From Stramenopiles sp. TOSAG23-6 (Eukaryota; Sar), in NCBI GenBank assembly GCA_900128565.1, contig LT635930.1, positions 1 to 44,021 of the forward strand: a stretch of DNA of 44,021 nucleotides, in the 5' to 3' direction. The notes beneath the pieces are model-generated. The model ran no database searches, was not told where the DNA came from, and saw only the letters and a program-made list of their open reading frames with translations. Positions 8,223 through 40,268 of the stretch are shown one piece after another; the stretch's first letter is position 1; every line of letters begins with the position of its first letter. The translations under genes were made by a program, and so were the position numbers.

Positions 8223-10276
8223 ATGGATTCTGAGCATATATTCAATGGCATTGCTCAACAAGGGGCTCGAAAAGAGGGTGGAAGAGGCCGTGGAAGAGGT
8301 CATGGAAGTGGTCGTGGAAGAGGTCGTGGAAGAGGTCGCCGTGGAAGAGGTCGCGGTCGCCGTCACCATGCACAAAATGAAGTAAAACGTCACAATAGTG
8401 GTCACAAAAGAATTCGTGAGAGAAGTTACAGTTCATCCAGTCGTCAGGGTAGTCGTGATGCTCCGCGTACTGTAAAAGATCTGGAACAGCAGCTTTTTTC
8501 GCAAAATGTGCCGCAAGCACGCAAAAAGAATAATAAAAAACGGAGGAAAAAAAAGAAAAATTCGTTGAATATTAATGTAAATTCTGCGAATAGTTCACAA
8601 AACAATGGCGTTCGGCGTTCACCTAGAGTAATTGCAAAAACTTTTCAGAACGATACTGAGATGCCGGATTTCACACCAACTATAAGTTCCGGAAAGAAAA
8701 AAGATTTTATGACTTCTTCTACTTTTGCTTCTTTGGACATTGACACGCGTCTAAAAAGAGGTCTGGCTGAAGTAATGAAATATGTCACAATGACACGTGT
8801 CCAAGAACAAACACTTCCAACTGCTCTAAGTGGAGTTGATTTACTTGCACAAGCTAAAACAGGGACGGGGAAGACTTTGGGATTTCTCATCCCTTCGATA
8901 GACAACGTCTTACGCTGTCGACAGCGTTTGAGTGGTGTTTCCATCATTGCAATTTCACCGACCAGAGAATTAGCTAACCAAATATGTACAGAAGCATCAA
9001 AGTTATTATATTTTCATCCTAATTTTAAGACGTGTTCAATGGTGGGTGGAACAAATAAAAAAACTGATATCAAACGTATCAAAAGTGGCATCGATCTTCT
9101 CGTAGCAACTCCTGGCAGGTTGATAGATCACTTGCAGTCAACTCCAGGATTTCGTGAGCAGTGTGCTAGTGTAAAAGTTTTGATTCTCGATGAAGCCGAT
9201 CAAATGCTAGAGATGGGTTTCAGACCTGATCTTACACGAATTATTAGTTATTTACCAAAGGATAGGCAAAGTTTATTATTTTCTGCAACAATGCCTAAAA
9301 GTTTGATGGATGTGTGTAAAATTGCAGTTAAACATGATTATAAATATATCAATACAATACCAAAAGATCAGCAGCAGACTCACAAAAAAGTTCCACAAGC
9401 TGTTGTCGTTGCACCAGTGGATCAAATTACAAATATGGTTATGAAAGAAATCTCTATAGAGATGCAAAGGCATCCAAATAATTTTAAAGTCATGATATTT
9501 TTTGTGACTGCTCGTTTGACCGGATTTATGGCAACTTTATGTCGAAAAGCTCGTATACCTACTATAGAAATGCATTCAAGAAAAAGTCAATCATACCGCA
9601 CAAAAGCAGCCAAACAATTCCGTGATGGAACAAAACTGGTATTGTTTACGTCTGATGTATCCGCGAGAGGTGTTGATTACCCTGATGTGACGCTTGTCAT
9701 GCAAGTTGGTATGACTGAACGAGAGCCTTACATGTATGTTTTATTTTTTTTCAAATTCGATTTTTTTTTCATACGAAATTTTGTACCTAACGAATTTTTT
9801 TTTGAAATATTTTTCTAAAATACATTCATCGTCTTGGTCGAACTGCTCGTGCAGCAAGTGGAGTAGAAGGTCGAGGAAAGCTAGTATTAGCCCCATTTGA
9901 GTCAAAATTTTGTCTTTCATTACTTACTGAGTTACCTATACAATTTGAGACGTATGTGCCTTGCAAAGATACTCATCCAGAAGTTTTTACTCATGTGACT
10001 CGGATGCTGAATGATATAAAAAAAGATCCGGAAATGAGAAAAGCAGCTGCACAAGCGTATCAAGCATGGATTGGATTCTATAATGGTTACTTGCGAAAAT
10101 TACGTTGGAACAAACCTGAACTCGTTCGCATGGGGACGGAATTTGCAAGGTCTATCAATGCATTGGACGTACAAGGAAACCCTCCAGCTCTTCTTCGACG
10201 AACTGTTGGGAAAATGGGACTGAAAGGAATTCGTGGTCTTACGATTGTGAACTCACCAAATGATTTAGTCTACTAA
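8223..10276 (+). CDS. DEAD-box RNA helicase with RGG N-terminus, MSS116/RH26-like
   Basis: Exons are 8223-9733 and 9826-10276, giving 653 residues. The N-terminus (about 19-48) is a Gly/Arg-rich tract, followed by a Lys-rich linker. Motifs seen: Q motif (VQEQTLPTAL, about 193-202), I AKTGTGKT (211-218), Ia PTREL (246-250), Ib TPGR (296-299), II DEAD (323-326), III SAT (354-356), V SARGVDYPD, and VI HRLGRTAR (505-512). Motif VI is complete only if the 92-nt introner is removed. The C-terminal region (LLTELPIQFETYVPC) resembles the MSS116 / plant RH25-RH26-RH31 group, ATP-dependent RNA chaperones of organelle or nuclear RNA. No clear transit peptide is seen. Exon 1 ends in TAC AT and exon 2 begins T CAT CGT, so the frame is kept exactly. 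Confidence 0.92.
9734..9825 (+). mobile_element. Introner (GT...AT), 92 nt, in the DEAD-box gene
   Basis: Starts GTATGTTTTATT, contains TTGTACCTAACGAA, ends CTAAAATACAT. Removing it restores motif VI (YIHRLGRTARA) in frame. No AG occurs between the branch block and the resumption of motif VI, so a GT...AG reading is not possible without losing the motif. Confidence 0.93.
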
Positions 10277-10502
10277 ATTTCTAAATTATTTAGAAAATGA
10301 AAAATATGTCGAATTTGAAAAAAACAAAAGTCAAAAAAAAGATCAAAAAAATGCTTGTGAGATACCTTACTTACTATATAGTTCAATCAAAATTAATGAA
10401 AGTTTTATATATAATATATTATTCTTATAAATACACATATATCATTTTGTTTTTCAAGTCATTCTCGATATACCCATATCATAATCGATCCAGCAATTTT
10501 GT

Positions 10503-12158: not shown

Positions 12159-12396
12159 TGTCTTTTTCTCAGCAAGATTTTTAAAGTTATCCGCGGGGAT
12201 ACAAGGAAGGATACAGTCCCTTGGATACAGAGAGCGAGTTTAAATCGTTTGGAGGGGCTTTTAATAGCATGTTTGTTCCATCAACCGTATAAGTCAAAAG
12301 TGTAGATCAAAAGGTACCATGAACAATGTATTAAAATGATTTAAATTTTATTTTGGATGAAATCAATACACTTTATTTTCATCCTGAAAATCAAAT

Positions 12397-14184
12397 TTAT
12401 GTAACTAACATTTTTTTAGCAAATGTGCTCATACAACAACCAAATGCCTGTATAGGTGAAAATGGGTATTTAAAATCTAGAGAATATACATTCCTTCTCA
12501 CTTTCCCAAAACGAAGCTGTTCTGTATCAATCCCAAATTCACTTTCTAGATGACATGTGTTGTAAAAAAATATTTTAAAAATTTGAAATTCGTTAGGTAT
12601 GGTATTTGGTACGAAAAGAATAAATTTGAAATTCATGATAAAAACGTACATGAACTTTCCACCTCAAGTAGAAAATTTTTTTTTGACGCTTTCTTTACAC
12701 GACCATCAAAATTGAGAGTCCACGCATTCAAATCTTTATTCCATTTATTGTAAAAAAATATAAAAAAAAAATCGTTAGGTACAAAAGTTTCTATGAAAAA
12801 AAAAAAAAAAAAAGTCGATATTATTTTGAAAACGTACACGATGGCTGTTTTGTACGAAATTGTAATAATTGAGACTGTTCTTGAACGCCCAAAGATGCAT
12901 ATTCATTTCTAATAACCTCCTTCTCACCTCCGGTAGGTTTCTCCTTTGTAATTCGATTTTTTTGTTCCATATCAAATCGGTCACAAAGACTCATAAAATT
13001 AGCTTTCAATGCATCTTCATCATCATGACGTGGTAGTATCACTTTCATGTATTTTGGAAAAATATTTGAAAAAAAAATTGTTCGGTACAAAATTTCGTAT
13101 GAAAAAATAAATTCGAAATAAAAAAAAAATAAAACATACATCGAGTTTGGCACTCGGGCTAAGATATTAGTCTCAAAACGAATATGGATTAAATCGTGAG
13201 CAGCATATATTTTCAAAAATACTTTACATTTTGATGTTTCTTTGTTAGGTACAAAATTTGGTATGAAAAAGATATTTATTCAATTTTGAAAAAAACGTAC
13301 ATGACTACTTTTCACCTTTAATTGAGGATTTCGTGCTCTATAATCAAAAAGAGAAAACTGCTTTCCAGTCATATTACTTATCATACACCCTAAATATACT
13401 GGACTTGACTCAGATGTTGGTATACTATCTATAGTTGTTAGCCTAAAAGTGTTATTAATTGTACTAAATATACAGAGACCCTTGTGCGTACTATTCATAC
13501 TAGCAGCCATGTNTTCGTGAAAAAATATTTTTTTTTTGTCAAAAAGCTTGTTAGGTACAAAATTGTGTATGAAAAAAAATATATATTCATGATGAAAACA
13601 TACATCATAAATTCGCCCGATTGTTTGTGAAAATGCCAAGCAGTAACAAACGCACCGACGTATCGACGAATATATCCTAAACACCATATATCAGACACGG
13701 AATCAGTTACAGGAGATAAAAATGTTGCCTTTTGTCCGTGCATTAGTTGGTGCAGACGCTGACCTTCTGGAACCTCAGCAAAGTCCGTTGTTGGTTTCTC
13801 TTTAAATATTCCTCGGAGCTTATTTGGATTATCTTTTATTGGTTCGCTTATTAAAGCATTACCCGTAGAGAGATCAAAGAGTTCATCTCCACTAGCAGAA
13901 TACTCTTCGTAGGACTCTTCGTCGTCAGAAACATTATTTGAGCCTTCTTGAGAACTGTTATCCGAGTCTTTCTTAGAATCCTCAACATCTACAGTCACAA
14001 GTTCTGCCTGTATGTTGCTTTCTTTTACAGTGGGCGTACTTAATTTATTCACGTCTGTGCTGATTGGCTCACTTAGAATACCCTTCTCTACATTTGATTC
14101 AGTCTCTAAGGGAGCTGCGTTTAAATTAGTTTCGGCTACATCACCGAAAATATCCCAAACGTCATCGAACTTTTGATCTCCCAT
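12397..14184 (-). CDS. Tubby-like protein, six exons
   Basis: Exons (minus strand, 5' to 3'): 14184-13604, 13508-13301, 13204-13140, 13046-12838, 12742-12650, 12554-12397. Total 1,314 nt, 437 residues. The N-terminal 190 residues are acidic and disordered. The tubby C-terminal domain follows. Recognisable pieces are GCMISNMTGKQFSLFDYRA, then LIHIRFETNILARVPNSMKV, then WNKDLNAWTLNFDGRVKKAS, and finally FGKVRRNVYSLDFKYPFSP. These are consistent with the domain that binds phosphoinositides and delivers membrane cargo to cilia. All five introns are introners, and only their removal as GT...AT gives one continuous tubby domain with the correct phase at every junction. Stop is TAA. Confidence 0.9.
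12555..12649 (-). mobile_element. Introner (GT...AT), 95 nt, tubby intron 5
   Basis: Sense strand starts GTACGTTTTTATC, has CATACCTAACGAA, ends ACAACACAT. Junction CAT|GTC, phase 1, in frame (SSCHLESE). Confidence 0.9.
12743..12837 (-). mobile_element. Introner (GT...AT), 95 nt, tubby intron 4
   Basis: Starts GTACGTTTTC, has TTGTACCTAACGA, ends ACAATAAAT. Junction CGT|GGA creates SWNKDLNAW. This is the one copy preceded by GT instead of AT, which excludes an AT...AC reading. Confidence 0.9.
13047..13139 (-). mobile_element. Introner (GT...AT), 93 nt, tubby intron 3
   Basis: Starts GTATGTTTTA, has TTGTACCGAACAA (one change in the branch block), ends CCAAAATACAT. Junction GAT|GAA, phase 2, in frame (PNSMKVILPR). 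Confidence 0.9.
13205..13300 (-). mobile_element. Introner (GT...AT), 96 nt, tubby intron 2
   Basis: Starts GTACGTTTTTTTC, has TTGTACCTAACAAA, ends GAAAATATAT. Junction CAT|GCT, phase 0, in frame (SSHAAHDLIHIRF). Confidence 0.9.
13509..13603 (-). mobile_element. Introner (GT...AT), 95 nt, tubby intron 1
   Basis: Starts GTATGTTTTC, has TTGTACCTAACAA, ends with ACAT (one N four bases upstream of it). Junction GAT|GGC, phase 2, in frame (EFMMAASMNST). Confidence 0.88.
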
Positions 14185-14612
14185 ATTCAGTGTAGTTCCA
14201 ATTCTTTTGTAGGCTTAAATAATGATCGTAATTTCAACTCTAATATTTTGCAAAACTTGAGCTCAGGTTTCAGATTAATCGTAAATCTCCTCAAAATAAT
14301 CAAGTTTCTACAAGGAACGAGATACGTAGCCTTCCTTTGAAGTTTGAACTGCCTGAAAGGAGGAGGAGGCTCTCTCGAGGATAATTTAACCAATTTAACC
14401 GTCGCAAAATTCACTAAAAAAAAATTAAAACTTATCAAAATAAACCGTTATTTCGATTTCGCGCTAGACGAAGATAGTACGTTCAACAGTATCGTTCAAG
14501 ATACTCTCAAGATACGCTCAAAATATCGTAAGGCGCACACACCTAGCAAGGCCTACGTAATTGTACACTTCATTTTTAAAGCCCTTTCCTCCCTTTATAT
14601 TCTAAACGCATT
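14185..14612. promoter_or_regulatory. Divergent promoter region, tubby / four-helix protein
   Basis: This 428-bp spacer separates two divergent gene starts. It contains a Gly-rich GGAGGAGGAGGCTCTCTCGAGG stretch around 14359. A 90-codon open frame that begins only at a TTG is probably chance. No RNA gene or repeat seen. Confidence 0.45.
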
Positions 14613-15470: not shown

Positions 15471-15569
15471 GGGGAAAATACGAAACACTTAAATGCGCAA
15501 TGAATTTTATTTGTTTAATTTTCAAGTCAGCACAATAAAAAGAAGACAGTGTTACTCAAAATATTATAA

Positions 15570-17057: not shown

Positions 17058-17468
17058 ACTGAAACTCTAGTTTGTGCTTAAAGGCTTATCTTAGACACCT
17101 AAAGATAGACAAAGACTGAATAATCTACTGGTATGGCAGAGATACCAATACACGTATCGCCTTATGTACAATCAAATTGAAATTAGGCGGCTCGTTTAGT
17201 CTATATTGTCCTGGAAAACCTCTCTCTTTTATCCAAGTGTCCGTCAAATTTAGTGAAACATCCCGAAACATCAACGTTGAAAAAATTTATTTTGCGCGCG
17301 CGGTCAACTTTTTGGAAGTCTTCTACTAAAGCACCACGACTCCAAGTATATATAGAGAATATTAATAGATTCCACGCTCTTTGAGTATTGTAATTATATA
17401 TCAAACTCCACGATCCTAGCTACGTATTCGACAAACGTTATAAGTCATCTTCTAGATAATCCTGCAAA
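17058..17468. promoter_or_regulatory. Divergent promoter region, PRIM2 / GOLD-domain gene
   Basis: This 411-bp spacer separates two divergent starts. It contains a GCGCGCGCG run near 17295, unusual in this AT-rich DNA and similar to E2F-type sites (TTTGCGCGCGCGG), which would suit a replication gene such as PRIM2. That is inference. No telomere-like box seen. Confidence 0.45.
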
Positions 17469-19697
17469 ATGCCAAAGCGCTGGAAGCGGCGACTCCGAAC
17501 TCAAATGCGGTTGGCTCACGAAGCCAATGCATTACGTGTTCCGAATTCTTCATTGAATAACTCAAAAGTGGTTGAATCAAAGCAGCCCCAGGAATATTTC
17601 CCACTTGACGAAAAAGGTGCTGCTCGTTTTCTTAATGTAGAAGCGATGTCGAAGTCAGATTCCCCTACTGATCTGACGTATCATAGTGCTGGATTACCCA
17701 TATTATATGGTAGTTTAATTGATCTTCCTATTCCTATTCAGGAAGGAAGTGCTGATCTCAAAATAAAGTTAGTCGCCACTGGGGGAGAAATACAGTATTC
17801 TGTATCTTGGGAGTCTCTCTGCCCAGTAAAGCATTTAGGTGTATCCCCTTCGAAAGTTCAGAAATACATTGAAAGTGAGACATCGCTTAAAAATTCTAAT
17901 GAAAATTCTACAATACCTCCGAGTATTTTTGAAAAAGAAGAGTCACTAGAATTATTGCCCTTAACTAATCTGAAAGGTTCGGACAACATTTCCCTGTTTA
18001 TTCCTAAAGCTGGTGTTGTTACATTACATGTGCAAAATAGTAGTACTACCTGGCCCGTAAAGGATGTACATTTTCAAAATTGAATTTCGAATTTTTTTTT
18101 TTCATAGAAAATTTTGTACCTAACGATTTCTTTTTTTATCTACACTTTTTTTCACAATACATGATGATGTAGTATTACACTACGTTGTCTCTTTAGAACA
18201 CATTTGTCCTTTGGTAACGAAACGAAATATCATGTATTCACTTAAAAAGCAGTGTAACGATTTAAATTCGATATATCGTGATAGTCTTAGAGTTGTTGAA
18301 GAAAGTAGTCAAAATTTAGAAACACTTAGAAAGAAATTATGTATGTTTTATTTTTTTTTTTACAAAAAAATCGAATTTATTTTTTTTGAAAAATTTTGTA
18401 CCTAACAAATTTAAGGTTTTTTTTTTNAAANATTTTTNCNAAANACATAACAATAAACACTCCTGCTCCGGTGCTTGCAGGATCACAGACTGTAGTTATC
18501 CAACGTGATCCAAGTATACCATGGTATGAAAGAATGTACAATGATGCACACAAGGCAGGAAATATTCGTCTAATATCAGGTCGCGAATTATTATTTGGGA
18601 ATCCAGAAAATGATGTGCAAAAAGAACATAAAAGCAATAAGAATATTAATAATACTAATCATGATAATAAAGAAGATGGCGAAGTGGAGAGTAAACGTAT
18701 CATTCATCAGAATCCTGTAGATATTGAGCTCTCTGCGGCAGCAATCCAACGTAATAGAGCTAGAGCTTTGAAGAAAGAGCAAGAAGATAAGGAGCTTGAT
18801 CATTTCGCTGAAGCAAGGTATGAGTACTCTCAGTGGTTGGCAAATGAAGAGGAGAAACTCACTGGAAATCATGTTGAGTCTCCTATTAAAGAAAAACGTT
18901 GGAAGCCTTTTATTGGTATTCAACGATTGAAAGAATATAGAGAAGTAGAAGCGTCAAATTCACCAACAAATCGTAATTTAATTGTTGAATCTAAGGCCTA
19001 TGTCAAATCAAATGGTCCAAAAGATGCATTTGGTGATTTACGAAGAGCACAGCAAATAGAAAGGCGACAACGATTAACCAAAAAGCGCACAGGCAATATT
19101 GTACGAAAGAAGCAAAATGTTAAATCAGGTAAAAGGGTAATTAGAATGAATGAACACCATTGGGAGCATTCAGCAAAGGCTCGTGAACGAAATCTATTCA
19201 GGATGAAAAATCCAAGTACATTGCTCCAGCCCCATGGTTTTAAATCCAAGATCAATGGTAATTCGAACCAACAACAAAATCTTAGTAAACTTGAAAAGTT
19301 TGCAAAAAATAGTAAAAGTAATAAATATCAACATAGTACACTTGACACGCAACAAAATGATACAGTACAGAATATACGATTAACATCTTATGATAGGCCT
19401 ATCCTTAGTGCAGAGGAATTAGCAAAACGTCGGGCTGATATTAGAAAACAGTTTTCGCGTAAATTCTCATGCAAAAGTTCGAATAGGCGAAGAAATAATA
19501 TATCATCAAGGAGATCAAAAACATCTAGATCAAAAAGATCTGCTTCTTCAAAGGGTGAACAAAATAATAGGGAAGATAAAAGTGTGTATACATCCAAATT
19601 TCGACATCTTGACAATGTGAATACACTTTATGCACTTCGTGGAAATTCGATAATGTTTGGGTGCCCCTCCTCAATTGATTCTTCGTTTACTATATAA
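17469..19697 (+). CDS. GOLD-domain protein with long basic disordered tail
   Basis: Exons are 17469-18065, 18163-18340 and 18445-19697 (last acceptor uncertain because of Ns), giving 675 residues. Residues about 85-215 read as a GOLD beta-sandwich: KIKLVATGGEIQYSVSWE near the start, and GVVTLHVQNSSTTWPVKD, then DDVVLHYVVSL, as its C-terminal strands. The second half holds a short coiled coil (VVEESSQNLETLRKKL), a block VIQRDPSIPWYERM and a long Lys/Arg/Ser-rich region. GOLD domains mediate Golgi and lipid traffic (p24, Sec14-like, ACBD3). No signal peptide or membrane helix is seen here, so it would be cytosolic. The GOLD call rests on pattern and is moderate. Stop is TAA. Confidence 0.65.
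18066..18162 (+). mobile_element. Introner (GT...AT), 97 nt, GOLD gene intron 1
   Basis: Starts GTACATTTTC, has TTGTACCTAACGA, ends CACAATACAT. Junction GAT|GAT, phase 0. Its removal joins the two halves of the GOLD-like domain in frame; without it the frame stops after ten bases of intron. Confidence 0.9.
18341..18444 (+). mobile_element. Introner (GT...AT), about 104 nt, GOLD gene intron 2
   Basis: Starts GTATGTTTTATT, has TTGTACCTAACAAA, ends in an N-rich stretch (18427-18444). Frame requires the exon to resume at 18445 (TAC-ATA-ACA), four bases before the usual ACAT end. With T at the N at 18444 this is still GT...AT. The Ns make the exact end uncertain. Confidence 0.7.
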
Positions 19698-22741: not shown

Positions 22742-23032
22742 TTCTTTATTTGAAGTTGAATTTGAAGTAGCAAGACTTGCACGGACTTCGGATCTCAGAT
22801 CTAAAGATCTTTATGTGTGACGAAACGTTACTTTTCCCCAAGATACGTTATTTTCTCAAGAAAAAATCAAATATTTATCTAGCTAGGGTTAGGGTTTCTG
22901 AATCTTGCAAGAAATAACTAGGGTTGGGGTAAAATTTATTTTTTAAAATTTATTTTACAAAAAATTTAAAATTTAATTATTTCAATTGGGGTTTGAAACA
23001 TTTTTTCACAATACATTTCATTTCATAATATT
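22742..23032. promoter_or_regulatory. Spacer with telomere-like boxes upstream of the FAM161-like gene
   Basis: It contains TAGGGTTAGGGTTT (22887-22900) and TAGGGTTGGGG (22919-22929), the same types of box seen at 5409 and 8083. At 22999-23023, next to the 3' end of the giant gene, the + strand reads TTCACAATACAT, identical to the 3' end of the introner at 18066-18162; no host gene is on that strand. Confidence 0.5.
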
Positions 23033-26000: not shown

Positions 26001-29000
26001 TTCCAGAATAGAAGGTGTTTAAAACCAACAGAGGACTCATCGGAGTTTTCCAAATCTTCATGATATCGCTTAGAACCAATAGGAAAGTCCAGAGATTCCT
26101 GTGTAGTTTTTACAATATGTCCCGTTAGATATCTTTGAAGCGACGATTGTATTGTATTGAACCATAAACCAATTAGAATATGCATTTCCGATATCAATAT
26201 TCTGGGTTCCTCAAGTTTGGTCTTACTCTTATTTCCATCGCTATCACAATAATCAAGCATACGAAAGAAATGTAAATTTGCTTGAATGTCATTCTGAATG
26301 TCATACGAATTAAAATGTAATTCCGAAGGCTCCAATTCAAAGAACACTTCAATGTCACGGGCAAGAGAACGAGTAGACTCTTTATCAGGATGCAAAGACA
26401 TTTCAAACGCCATTTTTTGTCCTTTTACAAGATTTCTCAATAATTTTATAATGATGTGATATACGTAATCTAATGACCGAATCTCAGTTGAACTAAACGA
26501 TTTTTCTTGTACACCTTGATTTCGTTTTTCCCACTGAGATTTTATATGTGCTAATAATTTTTTCTTATTTACTCTTTTTCCCTTAAACTTTGCAGGTATT
26601 TCGAAAGACTCTTCGGCTGCATATTTTAGAATTTTTTTGGTGGAATCTGAAGTCGTGGGTAGAGGTTTTATTTCGATCTTTTTAGCATCAACTGACTTGG
26701 ATGGTTGTAAATTCTTGACTTCATTGAAAATCTTTACAAGTATATCTTCTCTTTCCACAAAAGCATATGCTGCATATGCGATACGAATAATATTTTTTGA
26801 CTTTAATGCAGTTATTAAACTAGACCAAGATGATTTATGATCATTCAACGATACAGATTTCCACCAGGAAACTTCTTCTACTCTAGATTTCAGATTGATT
26901 TCTCTGAATAAAGTTTCTGCTTTATCAAAATATCCGACTTTTTCGGAATCTTTTGCACGAAATCCTAAATGAAAATTAGACCGAGCCATGAGACTTTTCA
27001 CTTCTGTATTTTTGGTCTCAGATTCAGGTAATTCATCAAAAGTCTTTATTGCATCTTGAAATCTTCCAGCGCGCACATATTCTCGTATTACGTCAACCAA
27101 ACGATTATTTTCACGCAAAATTTGTATACATTGATCTACACATCCATTAGTACGAAGAAATTTCAATGCTTCTTCAACATCTAAATTGCGTAAAGTTGTC
27201 ATCATTTCTGAAATATTATTACGTTTTAAATATGATTTAGCAGATAATTTTTGAAGAACAAGTAAATCATAATTTGGACCCGCATCTTTAAAAATCTTCT
27301 CATGTTCTTTCACGACTTTTAAGGCATCATTATAAAATTCTTTTTTTAAATAAAAGTCTACGACAAATTTATAATCACCTCTCTTCAAATGACACTCTGC
27401 TGCTTTACCAAATTCAGATAAAGACTCATATAAACGAGCTGCGTCATTATACAATCCAACACGAGAACTAATGTGAGCTTCAAGGTGTATTGTTTCGTTC
27501 TTCGATATAGTATTAGAGTCTTCTCTCGATGCAGTATCAAGACAAGCAATTCCAAGACGAATAAAAGTTTCCATTTCTTTTCTTTGAGCTTTAGTCAAAC
27601 TATTATTACCTACATCACCACCAGCATTCTGAGCACCCCTGAGAAACATCTCTGCTGCTTCAAAGAGTTTCTCAGAGCGCTGCAAAAATGTACCTTTAAA
27701 GAAAAAGTACAACTTACTACGATCATTCGCTTTATCTAAACATTGAATAGCTCTCTCAAGCATAGACAATTGAGTTTCTACACTATTATCACCATCTTCT
27801 GAAAGTTTATAAAAATTCGTTGCACGTTCGATCCATTCTGCAGGTGTACTTTTTTCATTACCCGCAAAAAGATTATTACTATTTGAGTCGTCGTGAACTT
27901 TCACAAGGTTCATTTTTCTCCAAAGTTCAAACATAGGTAATCTGGCTTCCTTATCTTCATCAAAAATCCAAACATTTACTCGCGCTCGTGTTATTGCGAC
28001 ATACAAAGATTTCAGTTCAGATTCTAAAATTCGGTGTTTTGATTCGCTAAAAGGTAACTTACGAACATTACCCCAAGTTGAACGAGAACCTACGGTATTA
28101 TCTTCTGTCTTTGCATCTATTTCTTCAGCATCATCCCACATAGATGTTGACTTTATACATCTCCAAGCTTTGTGACTTTTACTATCTCTAAAGAAATTGA
28201 ATAATAAAACATCATCAAATTCTAAACCCTTTGCTTCATTCACAGTAAAAACACAAGGATGTGAGTTCAAGAAATCAATTTTTTTCAGTTCAGCTTTAGC
28301 TTTTGTATCTCTTACAATAACAGCTTGATGAGCTCCGAGTTCAATTTCACTGGTACCCGAGTCTTGACTTCCTACCATTGTACATCCTAACTGATTTCTA
28401 TCACTCACTGCCATTACTAATGGTGCTGGACCTTCAAAAATACCTTCGTCATCAGGCAATTTATCAAGAGAATCTTTGAATAGAATATTTAAAAGATTTA
28501 CAACTGAGGAAGCAAGTTTCAAAATTCCAGAATGAGATCGATAATTATGAGAGAGTTTTTGTAACGCTGGTGTTCTAATTTCTTGTTTTTTGTATATTTC
28601 GTTAAATTGGTGAAATAAAACTTTGACATCCTCAAAACGAAAATGAACACCCGGTGCGATAGATTGTGCCGTATCACCCACAAGTACTAAGTCGTTGGGA
28701 CATTGAGAACAAATTAACATCAACCATAATTCCGCTTGGGTTGCATCCTGTACTTCATCGACATATATTTGATGAATGGGTAGCATATTTTTTTCACCAC
28801 GTTTCATTTGTGCTTCACGCCTCCGTACTAAATTATAAACAAGCATTCCTTTATCGTACTCACAATTCTTCACGCGAAGTTTTTCATATAATTCAAAAAA
28901 TGCATACACTTTCTCTTTCTGTGCATGAGAAAAATTCGATCTTTTGGCACCAAGTTTCTGATACTGGCGTAATGATAGACATCCAGGCCTCAATCGGATA

Positions 29001-32000
29001 TTGCTCTTTTTCGTGTCTTTTTCGTCTGTATCGTCGTCTTCTGTATAATGACTTGTCACCGATGCAATACTACCTTTAATAAATGATACGATTTCGCCCC
29101 ATACGACACTTGGTGAGAATGCTTCAATATCAACACCTTTTGCCACGGCAGACTTTTCCATTTTTGGCCAATATTTGTCAGTAAAAGACGAAAAAGTGAC
29201 TTGCCCACGCCAAACACCACCATTATTATCATCATTTTTTACATCAGCAACTTCATTATCAACAATATCATTATTCATCTTCAATTGATTCACACGATTT
29301 CGACCTAGTCTCATAACGTCGTCTTCTTCCTCACTATCACTAGCATCGGCCCAAGCACCAGCAGCAACAGGTATTTCAGTTAAACATCCAATATCTTCTG
29401 AAAATGTCACTCCTTGCACAAAATCCTCATTTTGACGATGTTGTACAAAAAACGGTTCAATAATATTATCGTCTTCTTCAGCAGTGCCAAGAGAATTATC
29501 TAATATATTGAGAAATTCTGATGTACGTAAAAACATAGGCCATTGTTCTTCACTGATATAACCAGTAAAAGACTTTGGTAACTTGCTCGGTAAAAATTTA
29601 TCACGTGGTAAATCTAAAGTTCCAGTGACAGAAGCACGCATACCTCGGAAATTACGCCACACTTCTTTACGCAGTACGGCATTTCGGGTCATAAAAACCT
29701 GATGCAAATGTTCTTTTTCAAACTTTTTATAATTGATTGGATCGTCTTGTACATTATTGTCGTCATTATTAGCCTCTTCAAGATCTATTCCATTTTCTAT
29801 TTGAAGAGCTCGCTCAGCAGAAGCACGCATTTTTGCACGAGCAACAGGAACGTTAAAGGTACCACCAAATTCAACACCTTCACCCATTATTTTCATTTTT
29901 TCCCAATGCCTTTGAAAACAATTCCACATCTTAAATATACAGCATGTAGTCTTTCCTGTCCCTGAGCGTCCTAATAATAGTAGTGAAGTGGGGGGGTTTG
30001 GTTGATAATAAATAATTTTCCATTCTTTCTCAGTTACACGAAACGGAATTTCTACTTGTATATCACTTTTACTCGTACCTTGATTCAAAATTGCAGTACA
30101 AAACTTTGAATTAAAGTCATAAAACTTCAAAATATTAAAAGCACCAGGTCTGTGTTCACCAGGAGGGTATACCTTCAATGGACTCATAGTAGTTACACCA
30201 GCACTTGAATACGTTTTTGGAAGATGTTGTTCAATGCCAGTACTAGTTCTTTCAATACCACCACCAACACCAGAATCTTCTAATTCTTTGGTAATACGAG
30301 CCTCTCCACCACGTTTCAGGCATAAACGAATATCTTCAATCTTTCTACTTAATTTATCGTGATTTAAAACTACACACCAAATTGTAATCATGTATTTTCG
30401 AAAAATATGACACAAAAAAANTNTTNGGNTACAAANTTNGNTATGAAAAATATATATCAATCTGAAATTGATAATTACAACGTACATATCGACATAAATG
30501 AAAACATCATTTTTTGCATCATTTCGATTTTGCGACAAACCAATATCTTGTTGCCATATGATTCTTGCACCACTGGTTAATTTTGTTTCGTACACTTTAT
30601 ATTTGGAAATAAGACTCTTTGCTTGTTTATAAGAACCCCAAAAACCTTTAGATATCGTAATAATTTCCTCAAATACTTGAATGATTAACCTCATATCTCG
30701 TTTTCGTTTTTTCTTTATCCAACGATACATTTCAGGTGACATTTTTACTTTCCACGGATTCTCTTTTAGTTCTTCATACTTACTTTCTAATTCTTCTTCT
30801 AATGTTTTAACTTTTTTCGGAACGTTTCGAATATTTCGAATGGCGTTGTAGCTTCTGATTGCTGCTTCATCTTCTTCTTCCATCAAATCATCATCATCGT
30901 CTGATTCGCCGGATTCTTCATCATCACTACTGCTTCCATTATCTTCACTATCTCCGTCACTAAGACTATTGCCTTCATCACTATCTTTCTCTGGGAAAAG
31001 AAGAAATAATCCAGGAATTTGATCCAAAAGTTGAGAAATTCTGACACGTATTGCTTTACACTCCGCTTCACGTTGTGCCAACTTTTGTTTTTTCGTAAGA
31101 GTTTTCACTTCTTTCTTAGTGAGAGATGTTTCAATTTTAGTTGTAGAATCTTTGATATCTATCTTTGATCGATCATTCGACTGTTCAGATTTTGCATTTA
31201 CATCATCATCTTCTGATTCGTCATCAAATTCACCATTTTGTCGCTGCTCCCATGCAATCTTTGCATTTTCAAATTCCTTTTCAAATTCTACTATCAACCC
31301 ATATCTCACCTTTTTTTTATTGTTTCTAGGCATATACTCTATTGCCGTTTTACCTTTAGCATTAACCAAAAGAGGATTTATTTTACCTTTATGCTTTTTG
31401 AGAAGATGGATAATAATGGCGCATTTTCGAGAATGTTTTGATTTAGTATGAAGTAATTTGAAAGCTGCATGAAGAGGAGTGTCTTTGTCATCAGATTCTT
31501 CATTATTCCAATTTGGATTTGCTTTCACTTTTAAAAGTTCTGCAACTAATGTGACTGATCGAGTTTCCACAACAGCATTGTATAGAAACAAATTGAATAT
31601 ACCATCAAGAGAATTTAACAATATTGAAGCTTTCGTTGATTTACTTTCGACTAACTGTCCTGAAGATATTTGTTTACGTAAATTCATCATCAGATGTTTC
31701 TGAATTTTTCGATACTTTGGAATAAAACATTCATATATTTGCTTATCTGACAACTTCGAATTTTTCAACAATGTCGAACCCTTCTCTTTCACACCTGATA
31801 AAAACAATTCTACTGGACACAAACCATCACGATTACCTAATAATAAGTCATAATCTTTGTTGCCAAAAAAGAAATCAAGCTTCACTTGATAAAACTGGCT
31901 AAACATAAAATTTGTGATATCCGCTTCTTCAACGTCTTCGGGCAATGAATTTTTAAAAAATTCTCTGCGAATTGATACATCTCTATTATCGGCATCAGAT

Positions 32001-35000
32001 TCATAATGTGTCAAATCGCGAATTGCTACATGTAAAATGGAACCAGTGCGATCTTTAGGATCATTCCAATAAACGTCGGCTCCAGCTTTAATTAGAGCGT
32101 CGTATATATCTACATCTAAAACCGGAAACAAATTTAACTTAAAAAATTTGAACAATAATCGATTTAACCAATTTTGTAACTCTTTTTTCTTTTCCAAACG
32201 CCAATCTCTCTTTTTATTCGCTTTATTCGGTTTTGGATTTTGAGATTTTTCTTTAGGAGTTATTTTTGATTTTTTAACATTTTCGTCATCACTATCACTA
32301 TCACTGTCACTGTCACTGCTGCTCGAATCAGCAATTCGATCTAAAGTTGGCATTTCGGAACTATCAGAATTACAATCAAAATCAGAATCGCTATTCACTG
32401 CGACTAAATCAGGTATTGAATCTGAATCACTATCACTTTCTTTATCAATTGTTTTACTTTTCTTTGCCTTTTTTGAAGAAGGTTTTTCAACATTTCTTTC
32501 TTCATCTTCATCTTCATCTTCGGGTATTTCAGGATCAATGTAATCAAAAGGATAAAACTTCATAAAAACATGGACAAATTCAAGAACATCAAACGCTTTC
32601 GACAATATTTCCTCTACTACCAAGCCTTTAAAACGACCAGTAGAAAAACGAACTGATTTTGGAGAACCTTGAGATTCAGAATAACATTGAAAAAATTTTA
32701 AAATTTCTGAAAAAGTATCATCTAAGATACATTGAAAATTTGCCCTGCCATCATTATTTTCAATTCCGAACTGCCAAACAAATTTATCTATAGTAGAAAT
32801 ATATTGATCTTCACCAAGAAGGAGTATACAAGCGTAATTAAAGAAGAACGTTTTCGCGCCTACTAAATATGTTTCCAACCAATACTGAAAAACGACAGTC
32901 GACAATTCCGATGATTGAAATATTCCTCTAACAAAATCACCTATTTTCGGAAACTCGGGAGCGATTGCAGTAGTATATATTTTTAAATCTTCTTCTTGTT
33001 TTTTGCCATCTTTAGGCCACATTGAACACGAGTCGTTGTATGCTCTTTTAATTTCGAAATCAGATTCCAGAGACTGATGGTCAAGGGAGAAATGATTAAA
33101 AGGCTGTAAAGATCTCTCTCGTATCTCAAAAAGGTGTTGATATACTGCATGAGATTCTTGGTTTATTGTTTTGTTTTCATGACTCGAAGCTGATTCATAA
33201 ACAAAACAGATGACATTAGTAATACTTGAAATTGATTTAGCAACATATTCACCTTTTACTTTATGTGCACGATTGATAAGTACATCTACGGACGGAAACT
33301 TTGGAAACGATTCATTTAAGATAGCGTTACTGATTATTCCTTTCAACTCTTCACCTGTTGCTAAAAATTGAGCCCAAACCCAATTTTTATCGATAACATT
33401 TGAAAATGCCATGTTGTCAACTGCGACTAAATATGTTTCGTACAATGTAGTATCTTTCACGATGTCTAAAGCGGTTGGTTTTTCTTTTGGTTGTACTTTA
33501 GGTTGTGACTTTTTCGTTTTCTTTTTCTTCGTATTACTTTTTAAATGAGCAAATTCGTCATCATCTGAACTTTCAGATGCACTTGCTATAGGGATAAGAC
33601 ATGGTATACTATCATCACTATCACTATCACTATCCGAATGTATAGGTTGTAGCTTTGGCATATCATCACTATCACTATCACTATCACTATCTGAATTCAT
33701 AGGTTGTAACTTTGGCATATCATCACTATCACTATCTGAATGTAAATGTTGTAGCTTTGGCATATCATCACTATCATTACCAGTGTCTTGTTTAATTTCA
33801 TCTTGTATTTGCATATCGTCAAAATCATCAGGTAATTTATGAAATGTCATTCGTGCTAACATTTCATTCAAAAGTGTATAATGCTTAGTGTAATGGTCAT
33901 GAATTTGCTTCTCTTCTATTTTTTTAACTTTTTCACTTTTATCAAACCAGGAATTGATTACAGATTTATTGTTTTCTATTTCGACAGTGAGTAAGATACA
34001 ATCCAGTGATCGATTACAATCTTCTGCCGACCATTTCATTCTCAATAAATCAGAAGCATTCAGTTCTGTTGTCCAAAGAATACGCCTAGGGTTGCAGCAC
34101 TCGCAAGAATTCTCAAAGTAATCCAAAATAACATCCTTATAAATTTCTACATGACCATCTGACGAGACTTCGCTTGAACAGATTCCAAACATTCTCATCG
34201 AAACGGTCGAATTTACTAATGTCTTACGATCATAATCATGTATTGTGAAAAATAATTGTAGAATTATTTTTGTTAGGTACGGAATTTCATAAGAAAAAAT
34301 ATTAGATAAAACATTCAATTGTAAAAACATACATGGCTTTCCAATGATATAGAGATTTTACGATTTAGGTCTCCACCGAAAAAAGAAGAAATTTCAAAAT
34401 ACTCATCATCCTCAGGTTCGTCTTCATTTGAGTATGAATAGCTAATTTTCAAACTCCAAGTTGAACAATCTGAAGCAATTATGTTACTAAAGGTTAATTT
34501 GAACTCGTAATCTAAAACATCTCCATCTTCTTCAACTGTCTTTGAGTCTGCTAATTTTTTTATACTAAAATATTGTTTTAGAATTATTCGTTCACTAAAG
34601 ACATCCTTAGGTGATGCATATCGTCGAAAGTCCTTTTCTTTTAATCTTTCTAGAGCATTGCCTAGCGAAAGTTTTAATTCTGGATAAAAACAAGAGGTAT
34701 TATCGTGTACACTATCTTTTAGTTTTGGTACAATCATATCGTTGAAAAGTTGCAATACATCAATATCACCTTGATCGGCAGCTTCTACTAAAATGTTCCA
34801 AAATAATCCACCCAACGTACTAAAATCTGTTTTTTTACAATTCTTTCTAAAATATTCTATAACACGTTTTATACCATATTTGCTACCCGCTGGATGCGGA
34901 CCTAATTTTAAATACGGTACAAAAGAAGTAGTTTGTAACGAATACTCAAGACAATGCATTAGCCATTTTACATCTATACAATCCCAAAATGCTTTTGCAA

Positions 35001-38000
35001 ATGCAATATCACAGCGAGAATAAGTTTCAAAATACAGAGTCTTTACAATATTTGATTTCAGAACATGATCTTCACTAATTTTGATTTTTTTCGTCTTCGT
35101 CTTTGGTGACACCGGAATTGTAGATGGATTGCAATATGAATCAGGTAACACTACTTTTGACTCATTTCGCCAACGAATCCATTCACGTTTAAATCTTTCT
35201 AACTTTTGTACAGCTAATAATTGATCTGGAGAATAATAGCCATATTCGACATATTCCGTGGCAAAACGCCTCATTAATTGATGCATATTGGGGGCATAAT
35301 CTAATGTAATTGTCATTAAATCTGAACGAACGCGTTCAAAATTTTTGATAATTTTGTAAATTTGAAATTTATCTCGTACTTTGGTAATGGGAGAAATGTC
35401 TTTTATCTTAAAAGGACCATTACCATTCTTATAAGGACCAGAAGTATTACCACGAAATATAGGATGATAAGTTGTCACAGTTCCAGGATATTCATTTGAT
35501 CTATTTGATACTAAGGCATCTATAAGATTACGGGTCTTCTGTGACTTGATGAGACGCCACTCGACTTCTTTATCTACTATATTTCGACATTCCGCTTCAG
35601 CGACAACGCGCATTTTCCAGTGAGATGTACTTGTTTTTATATCGTTTTTATTTATACGAGTTCGCATCACAGCATCAATCATAAATTCAGGCATATTTTT
35701 GGGCGCAATTTCTGTCGTCACTATGCAGAGTTGCCATACAATATCGCCATTATTTTTTACAATTGGTCGAATCACAGGACAATCATAATGTGTAATCAAA
35801 TCTTCATCTCCCACAAGAGTAGTCGTATCCTCACCAATATAAGTAGGTAGTCTCAGATCAGTCAGTTTAATGTTTGATCTTATATAGGCACCACTAACAG
35901 AAACATTATCATCATACCAATTAACTACAAACGAATCACTTTGATTTTCGAAATCAAGTTTATCCGAGGTTTTTCTACGAGCAGATAACCACAAAAAATT
36001 CTCACAATCAGGATTGTATCCCTGTCCATGCAATAATAAAAGAGTACCCATATGTTTTGGCGTTTCCACTACAAATTTCGACATAATCGACAGAACACTT
36101 TCAAATCGATTCAAGCACAATGTTTCACTACAACCATATTTTTTACCACATTCATAGACACACCCTTCGATATTCGTTTTTTTCCCAATATTTTTCACAG
36201 TAGAAACAAGACCAGAAATACTTTTCATCGCCGTAGAAAAAATACCAGAATCTTTCTTTGAGTTTTTATTAATCAACACACATGTCTTTTCATGATTTTT
36301 CACATTTTCATACAGACCAAAATAGCCACATTTTGCAGTACAACAAAAACGTTTGGAAAATTTTGCCTCTGATATAACGATTGTTTTACTAGGGTTCGGA
36401 CCACCAACTTTTTTATTCTTTTTTATTTCACCACTTTTGAGTAATTCAACTTTATATTTGTTCTTCTCGGTGTTAAATGAAAGAATTTTACCAGCAGTTC
36501 CATGTATGATGAAAAGATATTTCAAAAAAAAAACTAAAATTTGTTAGGTACAAAATTTCATACAAAAAAACATGTAGACAAAAAATTGAAATGAAAACGT
36601 ACATTGTACTTTAACGCTTTTGGATTTTTCAAACCATTAATCAAAATTATATCACCAACGTAAATTGTTTCATCGACTGGTTCACATTTAATTTTTTCTA
36701 TTTCAGCAACTTTTATATTCGATGATTTATTCGATGATCCATTTAGAGACGTTTCAATAGTATCTGGAGAAGTTGAACGAGAGCTCGATTTAGGGTTAGG
36801 GTTAGTGTTTTGTTCTTTTGAATCTTTTGAATCTTTTGATGTATTGATTTGTGATGAAGATTTGGCGTCATCTTTATTTTTCTTCTTTTTCTTCTTTTTC
36901 TTCTTCTTCGACTTTTTCGCAACATTTGTAGACGTCTGCGCATTAGTCTTAGGGTTCGAACGAGAATTTGCTTTTTCAACTTTCTCCGATGTAGACTTAC
37001 TCTCATTTCTTGCTTGTTTTAGGCGAGCTATTTTCGCAGCATGTTCTTCAATAATTGCAGCTTCCTTCAATTGTTGCTCTCGTACAACTCTTTCCTCATC
37101 TGCAGCGATTTTAGCGACTCTTTTTTGCTCTTCCAAGATTTGTTTTTCTTTCTGAATTCTTCGTAATTCTTTTTCTTTTGCAATTTCAGCAGCCTTGAGA
37201 CGTTTTTCTTCGGCAAGCTTCTCCTGTTCAATACGTCTTTGTTCCTCATTCTTTTCCCTTAAACGCTTTTCTTCAGCAAGTTTCTCCTGGTCTCTTTTTC
37301 GTTGCAACTCTTTATTTTCCTTCATACGCTTCTTTGCAGCAAACTTTTCCTCTGCCTTACGACGCGCTAATTCTTTCTGTTTTCTCTTATCTCACTTAGC
37401 TATTTTGGTTTTGAACGTAAAGTGGAAGCTAGCATTGTATTGTTCTTGTGTTGTTTGATTTTACACGTTTCTCTTCAGCAAGCTTAGTCGCAATTTCCCT
37501 TTCACGCTTAAGTAAGGCTTCCACTTTTCGTCGTTCTTCATCAAGTTTCTCTTCCTGTACATTGCGATTGGCGATATTAGAGTGTGACATAGTCTCAAGC
37601 TGAGATGGCTGAGGTTCGAGCATGCCTAGTGCCTGTGTGAGCGTCAACACACCCTGCTGCACCAAATCGCGCAGGTCATTGGTCAAGGCACTCATCCCTT
37701 TCGAAGCAACTGTGCGATAAAACTGCTGGTCTACTTCTGGTTGAATAGCACTATCTGAACGTTCGAATGGGTCATTAATCACGGTCTCCGTTCCACTGGA
37801 AGCGACTCTGCTGTACGACTGCTGGTTCAAGGAAACCCTTGGCTGGTTTACTTCAGGTTGAATAGTACTATCTGAACGTTCGCGCGTGTCATCAGTCAAG
37901 GCACCTATTCCATTGGAAGGAACAGCGCGATGAAACCGTTGCTTTACTTGTCGAACGACAATGTCTGGACGTGGATTTCTGCATACTCTGCAAATTATAC

Positions 38001-38058: not shown

Positions 38059-38425
38059 GACTAAACTTTGACCATGTGGCGACGCAAAAGTTAGTAGTTT
38101 TAGTCAACTGCTACAATATAAATTCCCACTTTACGTGTAAAATCAAACAACACAAGAACAATACAATGCTAGCTTCCACTTTACGTTCAAAACCAAAATA
38201 GCTAAGTGAGATAAAGGTCAGACAAACCAATCCTACAAGTTTGGTAGCTGCGAAGAAACGATGATGATAGTGTTTCTGGCCATGCGCGGTCACTTGAGTC
38301 AGGCAGATCGCATCATAAATCAAATGTTACCGGGTAATCTAATGGCCAATCAAAAATCTTTCATTTCTTGACTCATTCATGATATAAATAATATCTTGTG
38401 CGAAAAGATGGTCATTTTAGTCTAA
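38059..38425. promoter_or_regulatory. Divergent promoter, giant gene / pyrophosphatase
   Basis: This 367-bp spacer serves both genes. It holds the second arm of the 82-bp inverted repeat (38133-38214). No telomere-like box is seen. No other ORF or RNA gene is convincing. Confidence 0.5.
38133..38214 (+). repeat. 82-bp inverted repeat, arm in the divergent promoter
   Basis: Perfect reverse complement of 37387-37468. It lies in the 367-bp spacer between the giant gene (start 38058) and the pyrophosphatase gene (start 38426). Confidence 0.95.
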
Positions 38426-40268
38426 ATGGCTTCGTCACCAGTGACCAGCGATATGAAGCTGAGGCCATCTCATGCAGAAAAAGCTTTGACATTTTATGAA
38501 GCTGTGGCCAAAGTTGTTGCTTTACGTCTTGAGGATAAAAATGCTGAAGAAAAAGAAGAAACTTGTTCTTTAGGTGTTTTCATCCCTGATCTGGCAAATT
38601 GTATTTTTACAGGTCACACAAATACAGACATGGATTCCATAGCGTCAGCAATTGCAGCTGCACATCTATATCCTGGGGGTATTGCTGCCCGAAGTAGTGA
38701 CATCAACTCTGAAACTGAGTTTTGTCTGAAACGTTGGGTAAGTCAAAACATACTAACACTCTCTTGTTTACTTCACTAATTGTTTTTTTTTTCTGTTGTA
38801 CACCATATTATTAAAACCAACTCATTTAAACTCTGCAAACATTTACATTACAGGATATACCAATGCCTATTCCGTTTATTGAAGCTTTGGATGCTCAAAG
38901 GAAGCAGAATGCAATTATCAACATGGAAAATTCACCTGAACATACAAGCCGTGTCTGCTTAGTTGACCACAACCAAATTACGCAAAGTCCTGCTCAATTA
39001 GAAGAGAGTTTTGTTGTAGGAATAATAGATCATCATGCTATGCAAAAAAAAACTATATGTACAGATAAACCTGTGTTTGTTGATATTCGCCCTTGGGGCT
39101 CCGCATGTAGTATGTATGTTTAATTTTTTTTTAATTTCAATTTTTTTTTCGTACGAAATTTTGTACCTAACAAAAATTAATTTTTTTTTTGAAATATTTC
39201 TCCAAAATAAATTATTACAAGTCAGTATTTAAATCAGAGTAAGCAAATCCCAAAAAAGTATACTATATTTATTTCAAGCAATACCGCAATATATAGGCCC
39301 TACTACAATTTTACACCCTTTTATACTAACCTATTTTTCATTGAACACACATTTGACATATATTACAAATAATAAAATTGCAGGTATGCTATTATCTGGA
39401 ATTCTCTCGGATACATTAAACCTTCAGTCTCCAACAACAACAAATCATGATCGTCTTGCAGTTGCAACTTTAGCTTCTATTGCTGGTGTTGATGACATCA
39501 ATACACTTGCAATTGAGCAGTTTCGTGCGAAAAGTACGAGTTTAGCTTCGCTCTCTGCATATCAAATTGTATGCGGTGATCGAAAGATATTTGATTGTGG
39601 TGGTGAAATTATGGCATTTGGAACTTGTGAATTTTACGGTGGTATGAATTCTCTTTTAGGACGCATTTCAGAATTTATGTATTTTTTATTTTTTTTCAAA
39701 TTTGATTTTTTTTTCGTACGAAATTTTGTACCTAACAATTTTTTTTTTTAATATTTTTCCAAAATACATACATGAACTGCGAGCATTGACAAAGGAAGAA
39801 AAACTGCGGTATAATTTCTTGACACTAGTTGATATAGAAAATATGCATTCCATTTTAGTTATGCCAACTATGGCCGAAGTTTTACTTGCCAGATGTGCCT
39901 TCAAAACAACTAATAAAGATAATAAAAACATAGAACCTTTACACTATAGTGGAGTTTTCGAATCCTTACAAGAGATCAAGAAAATCGAAAATGAAGTTCA
40001 AAATGCAGGTGTCCTTGATCTAGGAAATCGTGTTTCAAGAAAACATGATTTTATTCCACCATTAGCTGCGGCTATTAATGATGGTTTCGTACTACCCGAT
40101 GATGTTAAAAAGAGTATTAGTGATGAAGAAGAAACTGCTGAATATGGACCTGTTGTTTTAGCTTGTGGCGAACATGTATGTGGTCTTCAAAGAATAAGTA
40201 TGAAAGGACTAGGCCTTGGAGTATTGGCGTGTATTCGACTATCAGAATGTGTAGGTCATTGTCATTAA
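38426..40268 (+). CDS. DHH/DHHA2 family-II pyrophosphatase or exopolyphosphatase (PRUNE-like)
   Basis: Preferred exons: 38426-38737, 38854-39113, 39213-39238, 39384-39678, 39770-40268, giving 463 residues. Metal-binding motifs: GHTNTDMDS (the family's HxxxDxD), VDHNQ, and DHH in GIIDHHAM. The block RPWGSAC precedes MLLSGILSDTLNLQSP, and the DHHA2 domain ends with LGNRVSRKHDFIPPL. The family cleaves pyrophosphate or short polyphosphate with Mn(II). Four introns: one canonical GT...AG, one introner, one GTAAGC...GCAG intron, and a second introner. Exon 3 is a 26-nt microexon in the preferred reading. The preferred model lacks the usual IPxxIAG before MLLSG; the genomic bases for such a segment (SKQIPKK and KIAG) exist at the ends of intron 3, so the boundary there is unsure. 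Confidence 0.85.
38738..38853 (+). other. Canonical GT...AG intron with TACTAAC branch site
   Basis: 116 nt, starts GTAAGTC, contains ATACTAACAC early in the intron, ends TTACAG. Junction TGG|GAT, phase 0 (KRWDIPMPIPF). Confidence 0.92.
39114..39212 (+). mobile_element. Introner (GT...AT), 99 nt, pyrophosphatase intron 2
   Basis: Starts GTATGTTTAATT, has TTGTACCTAACAAA, ends CCAAAATAAAT. Junction TAT|TAT, phase 2 (GSACSIITSQYLNQ). Confidence 0.85.
39239..39383 (+). other. GT...AG intron 3 of the pyrophosphatase gene (boundaries uncertain)
   Basis: Starts GTAAGC, has TATACTAACC, ends ATTGCAG; phase 1, in frame. The alternative that keeps more family residues would need a non-AG acceptor about 15-20 bases upstream. 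Confidence 0.6.
39679..39769 (+). mobile_element. Introner (GT...AT), 91 nt, pyrophosphatase intron 4
   Basis: Starts GTATTTTTTATT, has TTGTACCTAACAA, ends CCAAAATACAT. Junction TAT|ACA, phase 2 (ISEFIHELRALT). Confidence 0.9.

What the first reader, a model, noticed from the sequence alone, without database searches (positions are those of the whole stretch)
9734..39769. A family of at least 13 introners with GT...AT ends
Thirteen introns of 91-104 nt in four genes plus the giant gene share a 5' GTAYGTTTT, a TTGTACCTAAC block and a 3' CAAAATACAT. Removing each exactly restores frame at all 13 sites and recreates known protein motifs: helicase motif VI, the tubby domain, DHHA2. The 3' end is AT, not AG. 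In the DEAD-box gene no AG exists before motif VI resumes, and in at least six others the next AG breaks the frame. AT...AC is excluded by the copies at 12743-12837 and 39114-39212. Introners are known in several algae and fungi; GT...AT termini as a family rule would be unusual (my recollection of the literature, not checked).
Basis: partly seen in the sequence, partly recalled or inferred. Interest (0 to 1): 0.9.

Follow-up and report, generated by a model that had tools for sequence, protein, structure and literature searches.

The report
Mobile introns ending AT, not AG
An uncultured marine protist appears to carry a very large family of near-identical mobile introns that begin with the usual GT but end in AT instead of the near-universal AG, so ordinary gene-finding software misreads the genes that hold them; there is no RNA proof yet.

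Summary
The family is real and large. All 13 window copies lie where stated; exact removal restores the frame at 12 of 13 (18341-18448, which holds Ns, fails). The core AATTTTGTACCTAAC occurs 1433 times in the 8.0-Mb assembly, its reversed control 0 times. Of 93 full copies, 88 give open sense frames, in all codon phases; 79 start GT, 81 end AT, 70 have both. With the 5' cut fixed, the AT end is the best 3' cut at 8 of 8 tubby and HSP70 junctions (11 of 13 with a distant AAA gene); the next AG is worse at 13 of 13. A 2-nt target duplication makes AT..AC nearly equivalent, but flank-divergent copies favour GT..AT. Ordinary GT-AG introns and PRP8 coexist. A EukProt record of the same gene bears a MAST name (marine stramenopile) and its model is wrong at these sites. 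Best reading: introners excised by a U2-type spliceosome using an AYAT acceptor. Frames and homology support the ends; splicing and machinery are inferred. GT-AT introns occur in print singly; I found none as a mobile family.

The parts
9734..9825 (+). introner, 92 nt, GTATGT..ACAT, in the DEAD-box helicase gene, splits motif VI
   Evidence: Helicase_C 51.9 bits in the unspliced ORF, 66.3 after removal
9781..9791 (+). conserved block TTGTACCTAAC, putative branch site (CTAAC), branch A 35 nt from the 3' end
   Evidence: branch role inferred
12555..12649 (-). introner, 95 nt, tubby gene
12743..12837 (-). introner, 95 nt, ends AAAT, splits the codon of a Trp invariant in 16 tubby homologues
13047..13139 (-). 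introner, 93 nt, tubby gene
13205..13300 (-). introner, 96 nt, ends ATAT, tubby gene
13509..13603 (-). introner, 95 nt, one N, tubby gene (GEFM|MAAS)
18066..18162 (+). introner, 97 nt, in gene 17460-19697
   Evidence: frame restored
18341..18448 (+). introner copy, 108 nt, with Ns; exact removal does NOT restore the frame
30390..30485 (-). introner, 96 nt, with Ns in the block, giant gene
   Evidence: 4688-aa frame open after three removals
34238..34332 (-). introner, 95 nt, giant gene
36502..36602 (-). introner, 101 nt, giant gene
39114..39212 (+). introner, 99 nt, ends AAAT, DHH/DHHA2 gene
39679..39769 (+). introner, 91 nt, DHH/DHHA2 gene
   Evidence: DHHA2 36.1 bits
38738..38853 (+). ordinary intron GTAAGT..TTACAG, 116 nt, in the same DHH gene: canonical splicing coexists

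Best explanation
The elements are introners: a mobile family of about 82-124 nt (median 98) intron-making inserts in the nuclear genome of an uncultured stramenopile. An insert places GTAYGTTTT...CCTAAC...TTTTYCAMAATAC beside a duplicated target dinucleotide, usually AT. In the transcript the sense copy is removed as a U2-type-like intron: GTAYGT as the 5' splice site, CTAAC as the branch site, a U-rich tract, and AYAT (from the duplicated AT) as the 3' splice site instead of AG, about 33-46 nt after the branch. Supported here: copy number, sense orientation, exact frame restoration, 3' end by homology, AT held while the exon-side AT decays. Inferred: that removal happens in RNA, that the spliceosome does it, branch use, and what reads AT.
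For: 1433 exact cores, reversed control 0. 57 of 61 frames open for exact removal against 20-25 of 61 for out-of-frame shifts and 16 of 61 antisense; 88 of 93 in the profile set, phases 31/26/31. Retained, 65 of 88 would bring a stop and 15 more a frameshift. 3' scan of 97 ends with the 5' cut fixed: AT end best in 8 of 8 tubby and HSP70 junctions, 11 of 13 with the AFG2-like AAA gene; next AG lower in 13 of 13. Residue-level matches at junctions: HSP70 IPPM|LRGVPQ in two relatives, tubby GEFM|MAAS. Tub 138 bits after removal, none in the unspliced ORF scanned. Flank-divergent copies: GT..AT against AT..AC in Pfam bits Rad4 73.0/66.7, MFS_5 104.0/100.4, AAA 132.9/129.6; human XPC has Ile where GT..AT gives Val and AT..AC gives Asp. 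By divergence thirds left AT falls 26, 24, 18 of 31, right AT stays 27, 28, 26 (left p 0.049, right p 1.0). Left changed with right AT kept 15 of 88, reverse 4 of 88, p 0.019. Donor variants include GC 4 of 93. CTAAC in 75 of 83. PRP8 present. Ordinary GT-AG introns at 38738-38853 and in C282 HSP70.
Against: No RNA read or cDNA was seen. The profile was built from copies chosen for GT and AT ends, and 61 of 155 hits that did not reach both model ends were dropped, so end percentages are biased. One window copy and four others do not give 20 open codons on both sides. Actin-related copy: AT..AC scores slightly better (181.2 against 180.6), though that copy ends AG. Two AFG2 junctions score best at other ends (+60; +30 to +36) against 36-42% identical references. 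Retention would be harmless in 8 of 88. No U2 or U6 RNA was found, but those searches were uninformative: their prokaryote controls cannot ring. My scan for GTAAGT..YAG introns did not rise clearly above its controls (3 of 97 donors against 1 and 2 of 97, and 2 of 257), so how common ordinary introns are is unknown.
Confidence: 0.78

Rival explanations
1. The same introners are cut two nucleotides further left, as AT..AC (or one left, TG..CA); the duplicated dinucleotide hides the register.
For: 64 of 93 copies have AT on both sides, where the mRNA is the same. AT..AC fits A-C terminal pairing known from AT-AC introns (recalled).
Against: Under this reading the first dinucleotide would be AT in only 68 of 93, while GT in the other register is 79 of 93. 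Three of four informative Pfam pairs favour GT..AT, and the one-left register also loses in MFS_5 (100.7 against 104.0). Position -3 is C in 70 of 93 (27+22+21) and pyrimidine in 92 of 93, so AC would not be uniform. The right AT is held where the left has changed. Two window copies end AAAT.
Confidence: 0.09
2. They are removed from RNA by a non-spliceosomal route guided by pairing of the ends, as proposed for nonconventional introns of euglenozoans and Amoebophrya.
For: Short terminal inverted repeat ATGTAY/ATACAT with the flank; terminal pairs 1.47 on average against 0.60 in shuffles, mean folding z -0.9, in 60 copies.
Against: The pairing is weak. The elements carry a clean GTAYGT donor and CTAAC, unlike the low-consensus ends reported for Amoebophrya and hemistasiid diplonemids (passages).
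Confidence: 0.06
3. U12-type introns with relaxed ends: U12 work allows a 5' G to join a 3' T (passage).
For: Strong conserved internal block; GT-AT is a permitted U12 combination in that passage.
Against: U12 donor RTATCC 0 of 83 and TTCCTTRA 0 of 83 (motifs recalled); branch to 3' end mostly 33-46 nt, long for U12 (recalled).
Confidence: 0.03
4. Splicing ends at an ordinary AG, upstream or downstream, and the apparent AT end is a coincidence of frame.
For: The next AG is in frame in 26 of 61 copies, and 31 of 61 joins to it stay open. Some copies have AG after the branch (20 of 79, 15 of them 10-16 nt from the branch A).
Against: The next AG scored lower at 13 of 13 tested junctions and would remove the invariant tubby Trp.
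Confidence: 0.02
5. DNA-level excised sequences (like ciliate IESs) in a germline genome.
For: Short AT-rich elements with 2-nt direct repeats at the ends.
Against: One strand only: 57 of 61 open in sense against 16 of 61 antisense, with a donor-like and a branch-like motif; a DNA mechanism need not be strand-biased.
Confidence: 0.02

Closest known systems
Introners of diverse eukaryotes (Gozashti et al. 2022, PMC9860276; passages seen)
   Same: Many similar short introns in unrelated genes of one genome; target duplication supplying a splice site (the paper reports families that co-opt the 3' site from the duplication); mRNA length unchanged by insertion.
   Different: The passages describe GC and GA donor variants and GY/AG core sites; an AT acceptor is not in the passages I saw. 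Duplication here is 2 nt (3-9 reported for earlier families).
Introner elements of Amoebophrya (Farhat et al. 2021, PMC7789003; passages)
   Same: Marine protist, repeated non-canonical introns with direct and inverted repeats.
   Different: There no consistent terminal dinucleotides and long hairpins; here a clean GTAYGT, CTAAC and AT, with weak end pairing.
Non-canonical introns of the tunicate Fritillaria borealis (PMC13326754; passages)
   Same: 3' ends other than AG, including AU, removed by the spliceosome; divergent U2AF paralogues proposed as the cause.
   Different: There most introns of the genome escape GT/AG; here one mobile family has GT..AT beside ordinary GT-AG introns.
GT-AT introns in print
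   Same: Same terminal dinucleotides: one rarely spliced Giardia intron (PMC10711314, passage); U12 mutational work cited in PMC4176328 (passage); a statement that most predicted introns of Oxytricha granulifera show 'GT-AT' (PMC13185551, passage; possibly a slip, figure not seen).
   Different: None of these passages describes a mobile family.
Tara Oceans MAST-3 single-cell genomes (Seeleuthner et al. 2018, PMC5778133; passages)
   Same: Probable source organism: EukProt records named GSMAST32 share exons with two genes here.
   Different: The passages I saw do not describe these introns; assembly sizes in its table (18.9 and 21.1 Mb for MAST-3A and 3F) differ from the 8.0 Mb held here.

Membership tests
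Introners | Many near-similar introns in non-homologous genes of one genome | tested here: met
   1433 exact cores; unrelated genes
Introners | Copies sit in sense orientation and removal restores the frame | tested here: met
   88 of 93; antisense 16 of 61
Introners | Mobility signs: target duplication or inverted repeats (present in many, not all, families) | tested here: met
   Locus-specific match at -2: 76 seen, 66.9 expected (sd 1.5), 0 of 500 shuffles; none at -3 to -5; slight at -6 and -8 (29 and 38 of 500); -1 80 against 77.9. Short inverted repeat
Introners | Spliced out of RNA | not testable with these tools
   no RNA data held
Canonical U2-type GT-AG introns | 5' splice site of GTRAGT/GTATGT kind | tested here: met
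   GT 79, GC 4 of 93; GTATGT 42 and GTACGT 27 of 93
Canonical U2-type GT-AG introns | branch-like CTAAC/CTRAY motif | tested here: met
   75 and 80 of 83; use as branch not shown
Canonical U2-type GT-AG introns | 3' AG | tested here: not met
   AG 1 of 93; in a tight subfamily 13 AG against at least 234 AT
U12-type introns | RTATCCTT donor and TTCCTTRAC branch site | tested here: not met
   0 of 83 each, in shortened forms RTATCC and TTCCTTRA (motifs recalled)
Euglenozoan/Amoebophrya-type nonconventional introns | no fixed ends, strong pairing of the ends | tested here: not met
   fixed ends; 1.47 against 0.60 terminal pairs
Ciliate-type IES | no strand bias relative to genes | tested here: not met
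   57 against 16 of 61

The most novel reading that the evidence does not exclude
A mobile intron family has rewritten part of the splice code of its host: the spliceosome of this MAST lineage, or a dedicated 3'-site factor such as a diverged U2AF1, reads AYAU as an acceptor for over a thousand introns while AG still serves ordinary introns, because the insert's duplicated AT target supplied the only 3' site available at birth. Selection then holds that AT while the exon copy decays.
Probability: 0.45. Interest if true: 0.9.

Novelty: new variant of a known kind. Interest (0 to 1): 0.8.

Why it matters
The 3' AG is among the most conserved signals in eukaryotic genes. A clonal family of introns that uses AT, next to AG introns in the same genes, would give a natural experiment on how the last intron base is read, and shows how a transposon's target site could set splice-site sequence. 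It also means that the public gene models seen here are wrong at these sites (8 of 8 introner junctions in two genes), and that introner surveys assuming GY-AG ends could miss such families.

Tried and rejected
AT..AC register, AG acceptors, U12 type, hairpin excision and DNA-level excision were weighed and rated low (see rivals). The joint 5'/3' slide scan was set aside: its window start moved with the cut, so scores shift by about one residue. It did not favour (0,0) alone: other registers scored higher at several junctions, e.g. 344.0 for AT..AC against 338.7 at AFG2 junction 3, where both give the same protein. U2 and U6 RNA searches gave nothing, uninformative. A scan for ordinary GT-AG introns gave no clear excess. 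Attempts to name the MAST-3 lineage failed: the label GSMAST32 is in no held paper. TCP-1 loci were used only to look for cores. Of the 21 flank-divergent copies with open frames compared, 15 differ in protein between registers; four of those had a Pfam hit when tested (a fifth tested pair, L019, had none), plus one more AAA junction found by hand: Rad4, MFS_5, actin-related and AAA are the four pairs scored. The others were not scored.

Dropped rows: one search set aside 59 core hits lacking an end; one search had 155 profile hits, 94 full-length, 93 used after edge and duplicate filters. Duplicated contigs were not removed from genome-wide counts.
Full report
What is there. The 13 elements lie at the stated places and all start GT and end AT. 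Removing each restores the frame at 12; the copy at 18341-18448, which contains Ns, does not. After removal the tubby gene scores 138 bits for Tub (the unspliced ORF I scanned had no family), Helicase_C rises from 51.9 to 66.3 bits, DHHA2 appears (36.1 bits) and three removals open a 4688-codon frame.

How many. The exact core AATTTTGTACCTAAC occurs 751 times on one strand and 682 on the other in 8.03 Mb; the reversed pattern 0 and 0. Some contigs are near-duplicates or palindromes, so independent copies are fewer. In about 282 kb searched with a profile there are 155 hits, 94 reaching both ends, 93 used, median length 98, range 82-124.

Frames and orientation. With 61 copies selected for GT and AT ends, exact removal leaves at least 20 open codons on both sides in 57; shifts of the 3' cut that are not multiples of 3 do so in 20-25, the antisense strand in 16. 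In the 93-copy set 88 are open, phases 0, 1, 2 in 31, 26, 31. Retention would give a stop in 65 of 88 and a frameshift in 15 more.

Where exactly is the 3' end. With the 5' cut fixed I scored every 3' end from -36 to +60 against independent relatives. For five tubby and three HSP70 junctions the AT end was the single best in 8 of 8. For an AFG2-like AAA gene with distant references it was best in 3 of 5. The next AG scored lower than the AT end in 13 of 13. The spliced tubby aligns with nine close environmental relatives (P0121-P0129) without a gap at the junctions, save one extra residue in P0124 beside the fifth. The spliced HSP70 aligns without a gap at its three junctions with P0174 and P0175. 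The helicase junction aligns on YIHR-GRTAR of MSS116, with a one-residue length difference five residues upstream.

Which register. Left exon and right intron end share the same dinucleotide more often than shuffling allows at -2 (76 against 66.9, 0 of 500) but not at -3 to -5: a 2-nt target duplication, usually AT, with some GT and TT pairs. So GT..AT and AT..AC give the same mRNA in most copies. Copies with unequal flanks decide. Pfam bits for GT..AT against AT..AC: Rad4 BHD_3 73.0/66.7, MFS_5 104.0/100.4, AAA 132.9/129.6, actin-related 180.6/181.2; the one-left register in MFS_5 gives 100.7. Human XPC carries Ile at the place where GT..AT gives Val and AT..AC gives Asp. In thirds of increasing divergence the left AT falls 26, 24, 18 of 31, the right AT stays 27, 28, 26, and exon +1 G rises 13, 19, 20. 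Left changed with right AT kept is 15 of 88, the reverse 4 (p 0.019). This is what a held 3' splice site and a free exon copy predict; the numbers are modest.

End composition. In the 93 copies: 5' GT 79, AT 7, GC 4, others 3; 3' AT 81, GT 4, AC 3, TT 2, AA 2, AG 1; both GT and AT 70. The profile came from copies chosen for GT/AT, so a less biased view is a pattern count over the whole assembly: after CAAAATAC, ACATG alone 234 (slightly different pattern), other ends 38 (AC 15, AG 13, AA 10) and 25 (TT 15, CT 5, GT 5). AG is no commoner than AC or TT.

Machinery. GTAYGT and CTAAC (75 of 83) are ordinary U2-type signals; U12 motifs are absent in 83 of 83. In 20 of 79 copies an AG lies between branch and AT, in 15 of these 10-16 nt after the branch A, and is apparently passed over. 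Two ordinary introns supported by their genes are GTAAGT..ACAG at 38738-38853 and GTAAGT..CAACAG in an HSP70 on C282. PRP8 is encoded (PROCN 766.8 bits). That the spliceosome removes the introners is inference.

Organism. The EukProt protein GSMAST32.ASY1.ANO1.2481.1 matches the AAA gene exactly over shared exons but departs at all five introners, and GSMAST32.ASY1.ANO1.212.1 does the same at all three of HSP70. The name points to a MAST; by the Tara Oceans paper (passages) probably a MAST-3 single-cell assembly, lineage not settled. Inverted and duplicated contigs fit single-cell amplification (inference).

Literature. Listings seen; passages of eleven papers. I found no introner family with an AT acceptor in these. 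Single GT-AT introns are in print, and one paper says GT-AT for most predicted Oxytricha granulifera introns. Papers outside the held library were not searched.

Verdict. A new variant of a known kind: an introner family whose 3' splice site is AT. The single missing item is RNA.

Noticed in passing
window 37387-37468 and 38133-38214: 82-nt perfect inverted repeat with 664 nt between the arms, perhaps an amplification or assembly chimera.
   Followed up: no
G000 contigs C2, C4 and C13/C14: Core positions are mirror-symmetric in C2 and C4 and shifted by 2 between C13 and C14: palindromic and near-duplicate contigs, so genome-wide counts are inflated.
   Followed up: partly
L023 plus strand near 7047-7600 and L020 minus strand near 9510-9589: Compound copies with two cores close together, as if one introner had inserted into another.
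   Followed up: no
P0001 and P0170: EukProt GSMAST32 models lose or add residues at all eight introner junctions of two genes, so downstream analyses of that proteome may suffer.
   Followed up: yes
L044 minus strand 1022: An introner copy in an actin-related gene that ends ACAG, an ordinary acceptor at the AT position.
   Followed up: partly
window 40302-44021: Open frame with at least five repeats of about 100 codons, two of them 99% alike over 300 nt.
   Followed up: no
window 8070-8147: Short tandem TAGGGTTGGGGGT array, telomere-like, inside the contig.
   Followed up: no
window 22900-37400 minus strand: A 4688-codon frame after three introner removals, with P-loop and helicase-like and acidic repeat segments (domains judged by eye).
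   Followed up: no
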